DNA of 64,000 bases, taken from positions 1 through 64,000 of the forward strand of contig WALP01000029.1 in assembly GCA_015522785.1 (NCBI GenBank). The letters are read 5' to 3'. A model generated the notes under the pieces. It worked only from the letters and a program-made list of their open reading frames with translations. It was not told the DNA's origin and searched no databases. Every line of letters begins with the position of its first letter. Position 1 is the stretch's first letter. Position numbers and translations under genes: made by a program. The stretch comes from Candidatus Parvarchaeota archaeon (GTDB lineage Archaea; Nanobdellota; Nanobdellia; CSSed11-243R1). Of the stretch, positions 18,890 to 52,223 are shown one piece after another.

Positions 18890-18893
18890 CCCA

Positions 18894-18930
18894 CCTTCTC
18901 TTTAGAAAAGAGAAGTTGGACCAAGAGAAA
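18894..18930 (+). repeat. Intron-like three-arm element in the mcm-glyA spacer
   Basis: The spacer contains CCTTCTCTTTAG, then AAAAGAGAAG, then TTGGACCAAGAGAAA. The first arm can pair with either of the two purine arms. The same arm order and the ACCAA junction occur in the introns of tRNA-Ile, tRNA-Glu and tRNA-Ala and in the rRNA trailers. Here it lies in the leader of glyA and ends seven bases before its start codon. Confidence 0.55.
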
Positions 18931-38589: not shown

Positions 38590-38628
38590 GATTCTCTTTT
38601 TCTATTTCATTATTGGCCCGGTAGCTTA

Positions 38629-38681
38629 ACAAGCACCCTTCTTAAAAAGAAGCGTGCACGGAAGAAGTGGTGTTTGGGTGA
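38629..38681 (+). other. Intron in the D loop of tRNA-Ile
   Basis: This 53-base insertion begins ACAAGCACCC and ends GGTGTTTGGGTGA. AAGCACC can pair with GGTGTTT. It shares AAGCACCCTT and GCGTGCACGGAA with the T-loop intron of tRNA-Ala. Exact boundaries can shift by one base because of flanking A residues. Confidence 0.8.
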
Positions 38682-38708
38682 AGCCTGGTTGGAGCGCACG
38701 GCTGATAA

Positions 38709-38751
38709 CACCTTTCTTTGGAAAAGTTGTACCAAAGAAAAGTGAAAGAGA
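38709..38751 (+). other. Intron next to the anticodon of tRNA-Ile
   Basis: The 43-base insertion follows the complete anticodon loop, at the usual archaeal 37/38-type position. It contains CCTTTCTTTGG, GAAAAG and ACCAAAGAAAAG, the three-arm design seen in other introns here. Confidence 0.85.
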
Positions 38752-38805
38752 CCGTGAGGTCCTGAGTTCAAATCTCAGCCGGGCCATATTTTTTAGTGAT
38801 GTAAA

Positions 38806-40041
38806 ATGAAGATTGCAATATTCACAGATACATTTTCTCCACAGGTAAATGGTGTAGTCTCTGTAATAAAAGAACAGATAAAAGAACTAAAGAATAAAGG
38901 TGTAGAAGTTATAGTTTTTGCACCCTCAAAAAAAACACACATGGAATATTTTGAGGGGGTTAGGGTGTATTATTTTTCCGCTCGTGAAGTCAAAGTGTAT
39001 AGCGGATATTTACTTACTAAAGTTGAAAATGCAATAAAAATAAACGCAATTGTTGAAATGGAAAATCCCGATATATTTTATATCCATACACCATTCATAA
39101 TGGGATTGATGGGGTTAAGTTTGAGTAAAAAGTATTCAAAACCATCAGTTGGGGTGTTTCATACTCTTTTAAGTGAGTACACAGGACATCTAACAAATGG
39201 AAAAAACGAAAAACTTGTAAAAACAATCTTAAAAAAACCGACATGGGAATATATCGGGCTATTTTATAGAAGGGTTAAGGTAACAATTGCTCTTGGAAAA
39301 GAAATCGCCAAAAGACTGAAGAAAGAGGGCAATATTAAAAATATCAAGATAATCCCAAATGGGATTGATATCTCCAGACTTCAAAAAACAAAAACGAAGG
39401 ATATCCGCAAGAGATATAAAATTCCAAAAGGTGCAATGTTATTCTTCTTTTTAGGGAGAGTTAGCCTTGAGAAAAGAATAAATATATTAATTAACGCGTT
39501 CAATGATGCCAGCAAAGAAAAGAATATTTACTTAATCATTGGAGGTACAGGACCTCAGCTACAAAAATACAAACAATTATCTAAAGAAAATGACAGAATA
39601 ATATTCACAGGATTTATTCCAGACAATGAATTAGCATCTTACTACAATTCTGCTGATGTATTTATATCAGCATCTGATACCGAAGTGTGTCCAATAACAT
39701 TTTTAGAAGCTATGGCATTTAAATGTGCTTTAATCGGTGCGGATAAGATGGGTTCAAAAGATATTATCCGCAATGGTGTGAATGGACTCACTTTTAAATC
39801 AGGGAATACTAAAAGTTTATCATCAATAATTAAAAAAATATCAAGCAACAAAAAAGATATTAAAAGAATGAAAGAAAAATCATTCTCCATCCTAAAAAGA
39901 TATTACTCAATTGATAAAATTACAGATGAATACATTTCAATTTTCAAGAGATTATTAAACAAAAAAATCGAAAAAAATCACATTACCCATTTACTTGATT
40001 TTTGGCCAAAACTAAAGAAAGTTATACAAAGAAAGATTTAA
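38806..40041 (+). CDS. GT4-family glycosyltransferase
   Basis: The 411-residue product is a retaining GT-B glycosyltransferase. The N-terminal acceptor domain begins MKIAIFTDTFSPQVNGVVSV, with DIFYIHTPFIMGLMGLSL. The C-terminal donor domain has NGIDISRLQK, FFLGRVSLEKRINILINAF and the EX7E-type region SDTEVCPITFLEAMAFKC. These are features of the diacylglycerol or phosphatidylinositol glycosyltransferase-like group. It probably makes glycolipids or surface glycans. It reads from GTGATG sites just after tRNA-Ile and ends shortly before tRNA-Glu. Confidence 0.9.
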   Translation: MKIAIFTDTFSPQVNGVVSVIKEQIKELKNKGVEVIVFAPSKKTHMEYFEGVRVYYFSAREVKVYSGYLLTKVENAIKINAIVEMENPDIFYIHTPFIMGLMGLSLSKKYSKPSVGVFHTLLSEYTGHLTNGKNEKLVKTILKKPTWEYIGLFYRRVKVTIALGKEIAKRLKKEGNIKNIKIIPNGIDISRLQKTKTKDIRKRYKIPKGAMLFFFLGRVSLEKRINILINAFNDASKEKNIYLIIGGTGPQLQKYKQLSKENDRIIFTGFIPDNELASYYNSADVFISASDTEVCPITFLEAMAFKCALIGADKMGSKDIIRNGVNGLTFKSGNTKSLSSIIKKISSNKKDIKRMKEKSFSILKRYYSIDKITDEYISIFKRLLNKKIEKNHITHLLDFWPKLKKVIQRKI

Positions 40042-40083
40042 AAGAGGCTATCCCCACGTTTTTATTATGCTCCGATAGTCTAG

Positions 40084-40133
40084 AGACCTTTTCTTTTGGA
40101 AAGAAAAGTTCTACCAAAAGAAAACTCGGACAT
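40084..40133 (+). other. Intron in the D loop of tRNA-Glu
   Basis: The 50-base insertion reads AGACCTTTTCTTTTGG, AAAGAAAAG, then TTCTACCAAAAGAAAACT. The first arm can pair with either later purine arm. It is the clearest copy of the shared element. Confidence 0.85.
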
Positions 40134-40159
40134 TCCGGTCAAGGATGTCGGCCTTTCGA

Positions 40160-40207
40160 ACGACCTTTCTTTGAAAGAAAGCTCGACCAAAGAAGGGCGT
40201 ATAGAAA
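40160..40207 (+). other. Intron next to the anticodon of tRNA-Glu
   Basis: The 48-base insertion reads ACGACCTTTCTTTG, AAAGAAAG, CTCGACCAAAGAAGGG and ends GTATAGAAA. It has the same arm order as the D-loop intron of this tRNA. Confidence 0.85.
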
Positions 40208-40309
40208 GCCGATGACCCGGGTTCGAATCCCGGTCGGAGCATTTTTCAAAAACATTTTAAATGTTGTGCTTGTTGAAAAACAAGATATACTAACTAAAAA
40301 AGTGAAAAC

Positions 40310-40426
40310 ATGAAGAGAAGTTCAAGAACTTGGAAAAAGAAAAGGCAATGTCGCTGGAAGACAAGAAAAAAAAGGATTAAAGAAAGAAAGAGAAAGAGAA
40401 AGCAAGAAAAAGCCAGAGCTAAGTAG
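40310..40426 (+). CDS. rpl41e: Ribosomal protein eL41
   Basis: A 38-residue reading frame, MKRSSRTWKKKRQCRWK then a basic helix (RKKRIKERKRKRKQEKARAK), matches the archaeal eL41 pattern (M-K-R-x-x-R-x-W-K-K-K followed by RW). eL41 is a tiny, almost purely basic peptide that sits between the ribosomal subunits. It lies between tRNA-Glu and tRNA-Leu, followed by a perfect inverted repeat that may end its message. Confidence 0.85.
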   Translation: MKRSSRTWKKKRQCRWKTRKKRIKERKRKRKQEKARAK

Positions 40427-40445
40427 TGAAGATATTTCTTTAATT

Positions 40446-40467
40446 AATCTTTCTTTAAAGAAAGATT
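40446..40467. terminator. Perfect inverted repeat after eL41
   Basis: AATCTTTCTTT is followed directly by its complement AAAGAAAGATT. It could form a hairpin and end the eL41 transcript. It also resembles the first two arms of the shared intron element, without the third. Confidence 0.4.
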
Positions 40468-40526
40468 ATTTCAAAACTTTTAAAAATACCCCTAAAATTA
40501 GTTAGTCTTATGCGGGGGTACCCAAG

Positions 40527-40563
40527 AAACCTTCCACTCTTTTAGAGGAGAAGGGATGGGAAT
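40527..40563 (+). other. Intron in the D loop of tRNA-Leu
   Basis: A 37-base insertion between CCCAAG and CTGGTCC: AACCTTCCACTCTTTTAG, AGGAGAAGGGATGGGAAT. It is the shortest of the set, and its arms are the least regular. Confidence 0.75.
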
Positions 40564-40588
40564 CTGGTCCAAGGGGCAGGACTTAAGA

Positions 40589-40630
40589 AGCCCTTTTCGC
40601 GAAAAGCGCTTGCGGAAAAGGCTTTTGATA
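40589..40630 (+). other. Intron next to the anticodon of tRNA-Leu
   Basis: A 42-base insertion: AGCCCTTTTCGC, GAAAAGCGCTT, GCGGAAAAGGCTTTTGATA. CCTTTTCGC can pair with GCGGAAAAGG or with the nearer GAAAAG. It resembles the intron in the 16S gene, which also has a CTTTTC/GCGGAAAAG-type pattern. Confidence 0.8.
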
Positions 40631-40660
40631 TCCTGTGACTTAGTGTCCGCGAGGGTTCAA

Positions 40661-40725
40661 AAGCACTTTCTCTCTTTGAAAAGAGAGAACCTGCGCTAAG
40701 AGAGAAACTTAGCGAGTGTTTGAAA
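40661..40725 (+). other. Intron in the T loop of tRNA-Leu
   Basis: A 65-base insertion in the T loop (TTCAA before, GT after). It starts AAGCAC and ends GTGTTTGAAA, which can pair with each other. The T-loop intron of tRNA-Ala has the same ends. Confidence 0.8.
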
Positions 40726-40760
40726 GTCCCTTCCCCCGCATTTCATAATCTGGTGAACAC

Positions 40761-41471
40761 ATGGTAAATATCTCAGTAATAATCCCAACGATAAATGAAG
40801 AAAAATATATCGGAATAACATTGGGCGCATTAAAAAAGCAGTTAAGCAAAGGTGATGAAATAATAATAATTGATTCTAACAGCACAGACAAAACAATAGC
40901 CATAGCCAAGAAGTTTAATGCAAAAGTGTTAAATTTACCACGTAGAGGAATAGGTCCAACAAAAACATACGGTGCCAAACAAGCTAAAAATAAAATAGTT
41001 GCAATGTTGGATGCTGATGGAATTCCTCATGAAAATTGGGTCAAGTATATTAAACATTCTTTTGAAAACAACGATTATGATGCAGTTGCCGGATTAGACA
41101 TATATACTGGAAAGACAATATTTCACAAATTCTTATACAATTTGTTCTCAAGAATAGTATGGGTAATTGCAAAAGCGGGGTATTACATATTACAAATACC
41201 TTGGATGCCCGTTAACAACATAGCAATAAAAAAAGATATTCTCTTAAAATACGGCGGGTGGAAAAATGTTGTATGTGAAGATTTGGACTTCGCAAAGCGG
41301 GCCAGAGGAATAAAAGTTAAATACAACATTAAGATGAGAGTAACATTATCAGACAGGCGCTTTCGAAATGAGGGATTTATAAAAACGATTATCCTTTGGG
41401 GAATTAGCGATTTAAAAATATTATTCAGTAAAAAAAGAAATTTATCCACCGACTATAAAGTAACCAGATGA
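40761..41471 (+). CDS. GT2-family glycosyltransferase
   Basis: The 236-residue GT-A enzyme begins VNISVIIPTINEEKYIGITL and has the metal-binding DAD-like acidic site MLDADGIPHENWV. It transfers sugars to glycolipids or polyprenols. A short hydrophobic segment (VWVIAKAGYYILQIPWM) near residue 140 could anchor it to the membrane. GGTGAACACATG precedes the start. Its 3' end is about 290 bases from the 16S gene. Confidence 0.88.
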   Translation: MVNISVIIPTINEEKYIGITLGALKKQLSKGDEIIIIDSNSTDKTIAIAKKFNAKVLNLPRRGIGPTKTYGAKQAKNKIVAMLDADGIPHENWVKYIKHSFENNDYDAVAGLDIYTGKTIFHKFLYNLFSRIVWVIAKAGYYILQIPWMPVNNIAIKKDILLKYGGWKNVVCEDLDFAKRARGIKVKYNIKMRVTLSDRRFRNEGFIKTIILWGISDLKILFSKKRNLSTDYKVTR

Positions 41472-41762
41472 TACCGACAGATTTATAAATAACTAAATTT
41501 CTCTAAACTTCTGTGACGATAAACGGGAGATAGATGATATAATCACTCTCCTAGTCTTTGTCAGAGATCCCTGGCCAAGACTCAGATGGACCTGATAAGG
41601 TTAAGAGTGAAGAGTCTTTTCCATTTCTGACAAAAAAAGACAAGTCACTGCTCTCGCCGGTGCATTGCGTGCTGGCACAAAGAGAGTGATGAGTAAGCGG
41701 TTATCCTGCTTATGATGTAGGAAGGTAACAAGTGAAATAGATTGTGCAACTAAAAAGCGACC
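41472..41762 (+). promoter_or_regulatory. 16S promoter and leader
   Basis: A TATA-like box, GATTTATAAATAAC, lies at 41480-41493. The leader of about 250 bases has no gene. It contains several hairpin-like segments, then GGAAGGTAACAA at 41720-41731 and ATAGATTGTGCAAC at 41737-41750, which pair with the 16S trailer. I looked for C/D box motifs (GTGATGAGT at about 41686) but found no matching D box. Confidence 0.55.
41720..41750 (+). other. 5' strand of the 16S processing stem
   Basis: GGAAGGTAACAA, AGTG and ATAGATTGTGCAA pair with TTGCGCAATCT, CACT and TTGTTGCCTTCC at 43350-43380. The stem flanks the 16S gene and would release the precursor, as in other archaea. Confidence 0.7.
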
Positions 41763-43312
<1,550 letters not shown>

Positions 43313-43349
43313 TATTATAAAGGTGGATGCAAGAAAACAATTCCTTGCA

Positions 43350-43380
43350 TTGCGCAATCTACCACTAGTTGTTGCCTTCC
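43350..43380 (+). other. 3' strand of the 16S processing stem
   Basis: TTGCGCAATCT, CACT and TTGTTGCCTTCC complement the leader strand at 41720-41750. The intervening trailer starts right after the anti-Shine-Dalgarno tail. Confidence 0.7.
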
Positions 43381-43386
43381 TACAAA

Positions 43387-43419
43387 CCTTCTTTAAAAAA
43401 GAAGCTTTACCAAAAGAAA
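43387..43419 (+). repeat. Intron-like element in the 16S trailer, copy A
   Basis: CCTTCTTT, AAAAAAGAAG and CTTTACCAAAAGAAA repeat the arm order and ACC junction of the tRNA introns. It lies outside the processing stem. Confidence 0.55.
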
Positions 43420-43450
43420 TTTCTTTAGAGAAATACTTTCTTTGATGCAA

Positions 43451-43488
43451 CTTTCTTAGAAAGGTGCTAAGAAGCTTTACCAAGAAAT
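43451..43488 (+). repeat. Intron-like element in the 16S trailer, copy B
   Basis: CTTTCTTAG, AAAGGTGCTAAGAAG and CTTTACCAAGAAA. The string AAGAAGCTTTACC occurs in almost the same form in copy A, so the two are related. Confidence 0.5.
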
Positions 43489-43554
43489 TCTAATACTTTT
43501 CATAGAAAAAAGTGATTAAATAAAATTTAAAAACTAGCGGGAGCTTTCTTGATT

Positions 43555-44079
43555 ATGCAATTCAAAAAAATTCTCGACAAGCTTGGATATGTGAAAGAGA
43601 AAACCAATTTGAAAGATTTCGCGCTTCTTTATGTGATTGTTTTAATTCCTGAAGTCATGCGCCACTTGGCGTATTACTTTGCCCAGCTAAAAACAAACAC
43701 AATTGGTTTCATAGCGAGCTACGAGACTCGCGCGATGTACTCCGCGCACTTTCCAGTCGCTGGTATTACTGAGGAATTCATAATTGGATTAATTTACATC
43801 CCGCTTTGGTTCAAGTTCAAAAAGCTTAAATTTTTAACATACGCGTGGATTGCGGACGTCGCATTTGATTTTCTCAGCGTTATGTCTTTCATCTTAATCG
43901 GCGCAACACCTTTGCAGATGCTCGGACTTTCGTCAAAAGTGAGGTTCCTTTTGAGAGAAGTAATATTCTTCTATGTAATTACGGGACCACTCTTGATGAA
44001 GTGGAAAATTGATGTGAAAAAATTCGCAATTGGAACTGCAATCTTTGGGGTTATAACAATTTTACTTTGTATCATCTAA
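43555..44079 (+). CDS. Multi-helix membrane protein
   Basis: The 174-residue protein has about five hydrophobic segments (FALLYVIVLIPEVMRHLAYYF, GITEEFIIGLIYIPLWF, FLSVMSFILIGATPLQML, VIFFYVITGPLLM, AIFGVITILLCII). No motif suggests a function. The ATG at 43555 is preceded by weak ribosome binding signals; a TTG six bases earlier is possible. It is tail-to-tail with the HD hydrolase gene, one base away. Confidence 0.6.
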   Translation: MQFKKILDKLGYVKEKTNLKDFALLYVIVLIPEVMRHLAYYFAQLKTNTIGFIASYETRAMYSAHFPVAGITEEFIIGLIYIPLWFKFKKLKFLTYAWIADVAFDFLSVMSFILIGATPLQMLGLSSKVRFLLREVIFFYVITGPLLMKWKIDVKKFAIGTAIFGVITILLCII

Positions 44080-44080
44080 T

Positions 44081-44695
44081 TCACTCTTTAAAAAATTCCT
44101 TAAGAAATTGCTTCATGAATTTTGTTCTCTCTTTTGCGATTTTCTTTCCAGTTTTTGTGTTCATCAGCTTTTCAAGATGAAAAAGTTTCTCGTAAAAATG
44201 ATTGACGCTTGTCTGCGAGCCTTTGTAATTTTTTAAATCAACTTTTGGTTTTATGTTCGGGTCGTAAATCGGGCGGTTAAGCTTTGCGCCGGTCGCAAAG
44301 CACCTCGCGATTCCAATCGCGCCTAGAGCATCAATCCTATCGACGTCCTGAACAACTTCTGCCTCTTTTGTTTTTAATTTTTTCAAAACATTTTTGCTGA
44401 AGGAAATATTATCAATGATATATTCAACTTGAGAAATTGTTTCCTCGTCGACGCCAAGCTTCCTCAAAAGTTTCCCGGCAATATTTTGTTTCTTTTTTAC
44501 AAACTTGTGGTCTTCCAAATCGTGAAGAAGCGCCGCAAGCTCGACAACAAAAGCATTTGCTTTTTCTTCCTTTGCAATCTTCTTCGCAAGCTTCCAAACG
44601 CGGTAAACATGCCACCAGTCATGTCCAGACTCTTCATTATACATTTTCTGCTTTACAAATTCCTTTGCTTTTGAAATTATTTGGCGTTTGTTCAT
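44081..44695 (-). CDS. HD-domain phosphohydrolase
   Basis: The ATG at 44695 gives MNKRQIISKAKEFVKQKMYN and is preferred over a much longer upstream frame. The 204-residue protein has the HD signature: HDWWHVYRVWKLAKKIA, then ELAALLHDLEDHKFV, and VQDVDRIDALGAIGIARC. The metal-binding residues are complete. Similar proteins act on nucleotides, dNTPs or unknown phosphoesters. It is transcribed away from the NifX-like gene and shares its upstream region. Confidence 0.9.
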   Translation of the reverse strand: MNKRQIISKAKEFVKQKMYNEESGHDWWHVYRVWKLAKKIAKEEKANAFVVELAALLHDLEDHKFVKKKQNIAGKLLRKLGVDEETISQVEYIIDNISFSKNVLKKLKTKEAEVVQDVDRIDALGAIGIARCFATGAKLNRPIYDPNIKPKVDLKNYKGSQTSVNHFYEKLFHLEKLMNTKTGKKIAKERTKFMKQFLKEFFKE

Positions 44696-44755
44696 ATCTA
44701 CTTGATGTAAAGTAAATTTAAAAAGTTTATATTTACTAAAATTATTGATGAAAAC

Positions 44756-45154
44756 ATGAAAATCAAACTTACCTGTGCAACAGACGACAAAATAAATTTT
44801 ACAAAAGAACATTTCGGAGAAGCAAAAGTTTACTTAATATATGAATTAAACTTAGAAAATAAAGAGCTAACTTTTCTCGAAGAAAGGAAAAATACCTCCT
44901 CTAAAGAAGAGGTACATGGCGACCCTAAGAAAGCAAAAGAAATTTCAAGACTACTAAATGATGTTCAGATTTTGGTTGCATTTGCTATGGGTCCAAATAT
45001 TGTGAGAATGAGAAAGAAATTTGTGCCAGTCATTTCAAGAAAAATAAACATAAAAAATGCTCTTGAGCTATTAAAATCTAAAACGGATGAACTAAAAGGA
45101 GAAGTCGAAAAACCAATAGGTGAAGATAAAGAAATAATTTTTCTAAAGGAATAA
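44756..45154 (+). CDS. NifX/NifB-type dinitrogenase cofactor domain protein
   Basis: The 132-residue product has the fold of the iron-molybdenum-cofactor-binding family (MKIKLTCATDDKINFTKEHFGEAK, KAKEISRLLNDVQILVAFAMGPNIV). In most archaea these proteins occur without nitrogenase and have unknown roles, perhaps in metal or cofactor handling. No nif genes are seen here. It ends just before the tRNA-Ala promoter. Confidence 0.8.
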   Translation: MKIKLTCATDDKINFTKEHFGEAKVYLIYELNLENKELTFLEERKNTSSKEEVHGDPKKAKEISRLLNDVQILVAFAMGPNIVRMRKKFVPVISRKINIKNALELLKSKTDELKGEVEKPIGEDKEIIFLKE

Positions 45155-45238
45155 TAAACTCGCTAGTTTTATAAATACTAAATTTAGTCTTAAAGATTGT
45201 GGGCCGGTGGCGCAATTGGTGGCGCGCCCGCCTTGCAC

Positions 45239-45298
45239 AAGCCTTTCTTTCAAAAAGAAAGCCTTGAGGAAAAGAAACTCGAGGGGGGCTTCAAGTGC
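45239..45298 (+). other. Intron next to the anticodon of tRNA-Ala
   Basis: The 60-base insertion contains CCTTTCTTTCA, AAAAGAAAG and GAGGAAAAGAAACTC, then AGGGGGGCTTCAAGTGC. It follows the same three-arm plan. Confidence 0.8.
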
Positions 45299-45318
45299 GC
45301 GGGAGGTTGGGGGTTCAA

Positions 45319-45380
45319 AAGCACCCTTTTCTTAAAAGAAAAGCGTGCACGGAAAAGAACTTTTTCGTGGGTGTTTGAAA
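45319..45380 (+). other. Intron in the T loop of tRNA-Ala
   Basis: The 62-base insertion starts AAGCACCCTTTTC and ends GGGTGTTTGAAA. It shares its core GCGTGCACGGAA with the D-loop intron of tRNA-Ile and its ends with the T-loop intron of tRNA-Leu. Confidence 0.85.
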
Positions 45381-45430
45381 GTCCCTCCCGGTCCATACTT
45401 TTTATAAAGAATAAATTCTTTGTAATTTCT

Positions 45431-52165: not shown

Positions 52166-52207
52166 GTCTTTCTTTTGGTCCAGCTTTTCTTTCCAAAAGA
52201 AAAGATG
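52166..52207 (+). other. Intron-like insertion in the P3 region of RNase P RNA
   Basis: TCTTTCTTTTGG, then CTTTTCTTT, then CCAAAAGAAAAGA. The parts are those of the tRNA intron element. It could also be an enlarged P3 hairpin that stays in the RNA. Confidence 0.5.
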
Positions 52208-52223
52208 GTGAGGAAGCTCGTCC

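What the first reader, a model, noticed from the sequence alone, without database searches (positions are those of the whole stretch)
38615..45395. Four tRNA genes carry nine introns, at anticodon-loop, D-loop and T-loop sites
tRNA-Ile has 2, tRNA-Glu 2, tRNA-Leu 3 and tRNA-Ala 2 insertions. In each case removal leaves perfect acceptor, D, anticodon and T arms. Most archaeal tRNA introns sit next to the anticodon; introns in D and T loops are known mainly from Thermoproteales and need a splicing endonuclease with broad specificity. By family knowledge, such endonucleases include heterotetrameric and ARMAN-type forms; none is in this window.
Basis: partly seen in the sequence, partly recalled or inferred. 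Interest (0 to 1): 0.85.

Follow-up and report, generated by a model that had tools for sequence, protein, structure and literature searches.

The report
Intron-packed tRNA genes in a nanoarchaeon
The four tRNA genes really carry nine small introns, and so do nearly all tRNA genes of this tiny uncultured archaeon, about two per gene; most of these introns belong to one repeated hairpin family that also interrupts its 16S rRNA, and its close relatives seem to have only the simple type of splicing enzyme.

Summary
Confirmed and extended. The four genes (Ile-GAT, Glu-TTC, Leu-TAA, Ala-TGC) contain nine inserts of 36-65 nt at D-loop, anticodon and T-loop sites; in-silico removal gives clean tRNAs. 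It is genome-wide: 32 tRNA genes in the 69%-complete genome carry 61 introns, and a congener carries 72 in 39 genes; a reversed-genome control gives none. ARAGORN finds 2/32 genes unspliced and 32/32 spliced. Introns have bulge-helix-bulge junctions, and relatives have exact empty sites. Introns per gene (1.9) exceed the published record found (P. calidifontis, 71 in 46 genes). New beyond the finding: 114 of 133 introns share a hairpin with a conserved C.C mismatch and a flanking helix that covaries strongly; the same element forms a 46-nt 16S rRNA intron (absent from the congener) and dispersed copies. Congeners encode one 177-aa alpha-type EndA, without the specificity loop of A. pernix, although most D-loop introns have relaxed motifs. 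Dense tRNA introns are known in Thermoproteales and Asgard archaea; no transcript was examined.

The parts
38615..38786 (+). tRNA-Ile(GAT) gene with two introns
38629..38682 (+). D-loop intron of tRNA-Ile (14/15; alternative cut 15/16 = 38630-38685)
   Evidence: R1 hairpin 38633-38666
38708..38750 (+). anticodon intron 37/38 of tRNA-Ile
   Evidence: BHB rank 0 of 625 shifts; weak R1 hit 38707-38740
40069..40241 (+). tRNA-Glu(TTC) gene with two introns
   Evidence: intronless orthologue in G003
40084..40133 (+). D-loop intron 15/16 of tRNA-Glu
   Evidence: central helix GTCT:GGAC 4/4; R1 40083-40122
40159..40206 (+). anticodon intron 37/38 of tRNA-Glu
   Evidence: BHB rank 0 of 625; R1 40160-40195
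40512..40740 (+). tRNA-Leu(TAA) gene with three introns
40527..40562 (+). D-loop intron 15/16 of tRNA-Leu
   Evidence: central helix CCCA:TGGG 4/4; orthologue in G003 lacks it
40588..40629 (+). anticodon intron 37/38 of tRNA-Leu
   Evidence: R1 40588-40620
40662..40726 (+). T-loop intron 59/60 of tRNA-Leu
   Evidence: central helix TTCA:TGAA 4/4, outer helix = T stem
45201..45395 (+). tRNA-Ala(TGC) gene with two introns
45238..45297 (+). anticodon intron 37/38 of tRNA-Ala
   Evidence: BHB rank 0 of 625; R1 45238-45275, E=1.6e-10
45320..45381 (+). T-loop intron 59/60 of tRNA-Ala
   Evidence: central helix 4/4; R1 45321-45357; absent from G002 orthologue
42515..42560 (+). 46-nt intron in the 16S rRNA gene, same element family
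   Evidence: R1 42515-42552 E=7e-4; exact empty site in G002 16S; central helix TTAG:CTAA read from the sequence
43383..43418 (+). element copy in the spacer just 3' of 16S rRNA, outside any tRNA
   Evidence: R1 E=1.7e-6

Best explanation
These are archaeal protein-spliced (BHB) introns. In each pre-tRNA the 5' exon nucleotides just before the insertion (10-13 in the D arm, 32-35 in the anticodon loop, 54-57 in the T loop) pair with four nucleotides near the intron's 3' end, and the intron's ends pair with each other. The alpha-type EndA cuts in the two bulges and RtcB joins the exons. Most of the introns are copies of one short hairpin element: a pyrimidine/purine stem, a C.C mismatch, and a variable 3-4 bp foot. 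It has spread in this genus into D, anticodon and T sites of nearly all tRNA genes and into 16S rRNA. Shown here: the insertions, BHB complementarity, exact empty sites, the shared family, its dispersed copies, and single EndA and RtcB genes in congeners. Inferred: splicing itself, the enzyme's homotetrameric form, and spread by copying.
For: G000 32 genes/61 introns, G002 39 genes/72 introns, reversed-genome null 0. ARAGORN recognises 2/32 and 5/39 genes unspliced, 32/32 and 39/39 spliced, with a largely non-redundant anticodon set. Central helix pairs: anticodon 196/228 vs 133.5 +- 5.6 permuted, T 142/152 vs 112.6 +- 3.1, D 127/152 vs 80.4 +- 5.7. Exact empty sites in orthologues. Family: 114/133 introns with hairpin, foot pairs 293/321 vs 145 +- 8 permuted, 16 different foot sequences; model R1 hits 64, 83, 87 times in the three congeneric genomes and 0 in many relatives. 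EndA (177 aa) and RtcB (495 aa) in G001 and G002.
Against: No RNA data. EndA and RtcB are not in the draft of this genome; the contigs miss the whole region that surrounds EndA in G002. Finder boundaries used the BHB motif, so the central-helix counts are somewhat inflated (one search is the less biased test). A few genes (Asn C19:8078; several Leu, Ser and Ala in G002) were cut imprecisely. Most D introns lack the outer exon helix.
Confidence: 0.93

Rival explanations
1. The genes are decaying pseudogenes and intact copies elsewhere do the work.
For: Genome is only 69% complete, so copies could be missing.
Against: Almost every tRNA gene in two genomes is interrupted, at the same few sites, with intact arms after removal; the anticodon set is nearly non-redundant; orthologues keep the introns at the same sites.
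Confidence: 0.02
2. The inserts are BHB introns, but spread is by ordinary duplication/gene conversion between tRNA genes rather than by a mobile element.
For: Ile-GAT and Ile-TAT share an identical D intron, and several genes share nearly the same 65-nt T intron, as conversion would give; insertions are exact, without target duplication in tRNA or 16S.
Against: Copies also lie in 16S rRNA, spacers and intergenic DNA; two copies are flanked by 21- and 28-bp direct repeats; inverted doublets occur.
Confidence: 0.4
3. A second, very divergent EndA subunit exists, so the enzyme is (alpha-beta)2 as in crenarchaea.
For: D introns have relaxed motifs, which only (alpha-beta)2 and epsilon2 enzymes are reported to remove efficiently (PMC6379350); G002 is 91% complete; a sister clade (f7) does have two adjacent subunits.
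Against: Sensitive HMM search of all six frames of G002 finds one EndA and nothing else below E=2; most near-complete relatives have one; the G001 and G002 proteins match M. jannaschii EndA end to end, without the A. pernix insertion.
Confidence: 0.15
4. The introns are self-splicing (group I or II).
For: Group I introns occur in archaea (PMC6125680, abstract and search hit only).
Against: 28-115 nt, too short for a catalytic core; no Rfam intron match at E<=1; BHB at junctions.
Confidence: 0.01

Closest known systems
Multiple tRNA introns of Thermoproteales (Pyrobaculum calidifontis: 71 introns in 46 genes; PMC8450103)
   Same: Up to three BHB introns per tRNA at canonical and non-canonical sites including 59/60 and 53/54; similar introns shared between different tRNAs (intron transposition, reviewed in PMC4090602)
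   Different: Here a DPANN genus; higher density (1.9 and 1.85 per gene against 1.54); D introns mostly at one site, 15/16; single alpha-type EndA; one dominant hairpin family
Intron-rich tRNAs of Atabeyarchaeia and Freyarchaeia (PMC11291895)
   Same: 92-95% of tRNA genes interrupted, over half with several introns, often non-canonical
   Different: Unrelated lineage; the passages read there describe no intron family or endonuclease
Archaeal 16S rRNA introns (PMC4496867)
   Same: Intron in the archaeal 16S gene; BHB-type junction
   Different: 46 nt, no ORF, same element as the tRNA introns; site about 793/794 (E. coli numbering from memory) is not among the 13 listed loci
alpha4 EndA of Methanocaldococcus jannaschii (PDB 1A79)
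   Same: Full-length colinear match over 168 residues, E=6.5e-39; no A. pernix-type loop
   Different: Works in a lineage whose D-loop introns have relaxed motifs; oligomeric state unknown

Membership tests
Archaeal BHB tRNA introns | BHB (or relaxed BHB) at exon-intron junctions | tested here: met
Archaeal BHB tRNA introns | Removal restores a standard tRNA | tested here: met
   ARAGORN 32/32 and 39/39
Archaeal BHB tRNA introns | Precise absence in orthologous genes | tested here: met
Archaeal BHB tRNA introns | EndA and RtcB encoded in the lineage | tested here: met
   present in G001 and G002, absent from the incomplete G000
Archaeal BHB tRNA introns | Spliced RNA observed | not testable with these tools
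   no transcriptome available
alpha4-type EndA (congeners) | Single gene with complete N and C domains | tested here: met
   PF02778 and PF01974 in one 177-aa ORF; no second paralogue
alpha4-type EndA (congeners) | No crenarchaeal/ARMAN specificity loop | tested here: met
   10-11 residue insertion of 3P1Z and 2CV8 missing; the ARMAN loop was judged only from alignment length (150 residues against 158 in 4FZ2)
alpha4-type EndA (congeners) | Homotetramer | not testable with these tools
   needs protein
Transposed intron family (as in Thermoproteales) | Similar introns in unrelated tRNAs and sites | tested here: met
Group I/II introns | Catalytic core | tested here: not met
   28-115 nt; no Rfam intron match at E<=1 in the window region

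The most novel reading that the evidence does not exclude
A short mobile hairpin element has turned itself into a splice-out intron: it copies itself into tRNA loops and 16S rRNA of a DPANN genus, each copy re-creating a BHB with its new exon, and a single-gene homotetrameric EndA without any specificity loop removes them even from relaxed D-loop sites. This would contradict the view that intron expansion follows a change of endonuclease type. The element's foot can pair either with its hairpin partner or with the intron 3' end, so each intron may be a two-state RNA.
Probability: 0.35. Interest if true: 0.85.

Novelty: new variant of a known kind. Interest (0 to 1): 0.72.

Why it matters
The genome carries more introns per tRNA gene than any archaeon I found reported, in a lineage (DPANN, Woesearchaeota-like) where the papers searched describe nothing of the kind. 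ARAGORN misses most of these tRNAs, and other standard finders probably do too, so such genomes can look tRNA-poor. The 16S intron lies inside the target of common 16S primers around position 787-806 (own knowledge of numbering), so primer surveys may miss the organism. If one plain alpha-type EndA really removes relaxed D-loop introns, the accepted link between endonuclease type and intron diversity (PMC4033280, PMC6379350) needs revision. Having congeners with and without given introns makes intron gain testable.

Tried and rejected
First tRNA finder without BHB scoring left D and T boundaries ambiguous. First regex for the element, with fixed 3-nt foot, was too narrow and little better than its nulls (20 hits, reversed 13). 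A second was still noisy (62 vs 15); the third is clean (48 and 63 hits, reversed 2 and 2). MAFFT of elements of mixed length misaligned the foot; a same-length set was used. Because those were selected for pairing, the pair counts are biased; one search is the unselected test. Direct repeats flanking the dispersed copies: only one of 20 in G000 has a convincing one, so target duplication is not general. Group I introns, pseudogenes and chance were rejected as above.

Full report
WHAT IS THERE. The window is contig C28 of a 578,669-base draft (30 contigs, 68.8% complete). The only named relative found by a flanking glycosyltransferase is a Candidatus Woesearchaeota genome with a tRNA-Ile gene in the same place. 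The four tRNA genes claimed are present at the stated places, with nine inserts of 36-65 nt. They are invisible to ARAGORN and to Rfam at gathering threshold. Rfam with laxer filters recognises only tRNA-Ile, at 42.9 bits.

GENOME-WIDE. An intron-aware finder (acceptor, D, anticodon and T arms, one intron allowed per arm, scored for BHB) run over the whole draft gives 32 genes with 61 introns: 2 genes with none, 8 with one, 13 with two, 9 with three. The congener G002 (722,724 bases, 91% complete) gives 39 genes with 72 introns. The reversed genome gives no gene. A further serine tRNA (GCT) with three introns at about C26:3340-3590 was read by eye and is not counted. ARAGORN recognises 2 of 32 and 5 of 39 of these genes as they stand, but all of them after splicing, with a largely non-redundant set of anticodons. 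A few assignments are wrong because a boundary was cut imprecisely (for example Asn read as Thr at C19:8078). The density, 1.9 and 1.85 introns per gene, compares with 71 in 46 genes (1.54) for P. calidifontis, the highest of the complete genomes assessed in PMC8450103, and with 228 introns over three Asgard genomes (PMC11291895). I did not find a higher figure, but the search covered open-access papers only.

JUNCTIONS. With boundaries fixed only by the mature tRNA, 15 of 25 anticodon introns have the best BHB score of 625 possible boundary shifts. With BHB-informed boundaries, the 4-bp central helix is formed in 196/228, 142/152 and 127/152 pairs for anticodon, T and D introns, against 133.5 +- 5.6, 112.6 +- 3.1 and 80.4 +- 5.7 when intron ends are swapped between genes. 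These counts are inflated by the choice of boundaries. T introns sit at 59/60 or 53/54; those at 59/60 have the T stem as outer helix. Most D introns sit at 15/16, where positions 10-13 pair with GGAC-like intron ends and the outer exon helix is mostly missing (h of 3 or more in 6 of 18 and 5 of 20), that is, a relaxed HBh' motif. The Ile D intron can be cut at 14/15 or 15/16.

EMPTY SITES. In the syntenic locus of G003 (same family) tRNA-Glu has no intron, and its D loop GTCTAGTCCGGTCAAGGAT equals the spliced sequence predicted here. G003 Leu and Ile (TAT) have only the anticodon intron, and G004 Ile (TAT) has no D intron but has a T intron. G002 lacks the Ala T intron. So introns have come or gone exactly, without trace, within the family.

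ONE INTRON FAMILY. In 114 of 133 introns of the two genomes there is a pyrimidine/purine hairpin. In the 107 with room for it, the next pair outward is mostly C.C (74) or U.C (15), and the three pairs beyond it are complementary in 293 of 321 cases against 145 +- 8 after permutation, with 16 different sequences among the 82 fully paired feet. A 38-position covariance model of this hairpin (R1) hits 64, 83 and 87 times in the three genomes of the genus, 39 times in G003, 0-19 times elsewhere among the 57 relatives, and at E<=1e-5 in only 17 of 279 genomes of the phylum. A strict pattern search finds 48 and 63 elements against 2 and 2 in reversed genomes; 35 and 43 of them lie inside tRNA genes. 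The foot overlaps the strand that forms the BHB intron helix, so hairpin foot and BHB compete; folding puts them within about 2 kcal/mol on average, BHB ahead in 52 of 82. That this is a functional switch is speculation.

16S rRNA. The 16S gene carries a 46-nt insertion at 42515-42560, a member of the same family (R1 E=7e-4); G002 has GGATTAGATACCCCGG uninterrupted with the same flanks. The two sides form a 4-bp central helix (TTAG:CTAA), read by eye. The 13 loci listed for archaeal 16S introns include 781 and 803 but not this site (PMC4496867; numbering of this site from memory).

ENZYMES. This draft has no EndA or RtcB; none of the 15 ORFs around EndA in G002 has its counterpart in it, except one distant paralogue hit, so the region is simply missing. 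G001 and G002 each have one EndA of 177 aa with both domains and one RtcB. A sensitive profile search of all frames of G002 finds no second EndA. The protein aligns end to end with M. jannaschii EndA and lacks the 10-11 residue insertion of the A. pernix and S. tokodaii enzymes. Reviews state that only (alpha-beta)2 and epsilon2 enzymes remove relaxed motifs efficiently and that specific loops track with intron-rich tRNAs (PMC6379350; PMC4033280). This genus appears to break that rule, unless a partner subunit is missing from 91%-complete genomes or beyond recognition.

VERDICT. What is new is the lineage, the density, the single covarying hairpin family shared by tRNA and 16S introns, and the apparent alpha-only endonuclease. 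No step of splicing was observed.

Noticed in passing
window 42515-42560: 46-nt intron in 16S rRNA of the tRNA-intron family; exact empty site in G002. It interrupts the conserved stretch used by common 16S primers.
   Followed up: yes
G000 C29:6115-6152 (L055, minus strand): Element copy upstream of a gene whose product looks like the N-terminal part of threonyl-tRNA synthetase (by eye), flanked by a 21-bp direct repeat that begins at the start codon; G002 has neither element nor repeat.
   Followed up: partly
L198 (G024 C6:2400-2800): Element flanked by a 28-bp direct repeat ATGATAAGTAAAAAAGGTATAACTCCAA, again starting at an ATG; why both duplications start at a start codon is unexplained.
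   Followed up: no
L183-L186, L189 (G003): In the intron-poor relative, antisense copies end 0-2 nt before the 5' end of tRNA genes and sense copies lie in 3' trailers; possibly end processing by EndA.
   Followed up: partly
L052 5106-5186; L060 5319-5399: Inverted doublets of the element inside 90-nt T-loop introns, resembling REP doublets.
   Followed up: no
L202 (G281 C27): Tandem array of about 48-bp element copies.
   Followed up: no
window 43383-43418 (+), 43437-43468 (-), 18890-18929 (+), 52170-52209 (-): Dispersed element copies outside tRNA genes, two of them in the spacer 3' of 16S rRNA.
   Followed up: partly
G000 C29:75870-75983: tRNA-Lys(TTT) intron at 30/31 with a complete BHB, unrelated to the hairpin family, conserved in G002.
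   Followed up: no
G000 C25:4124-4255 and G002 C21:61955-62089: A conserved tRNA-like gene the finder could not resolve (score 61-63.5).
   Followed up: no
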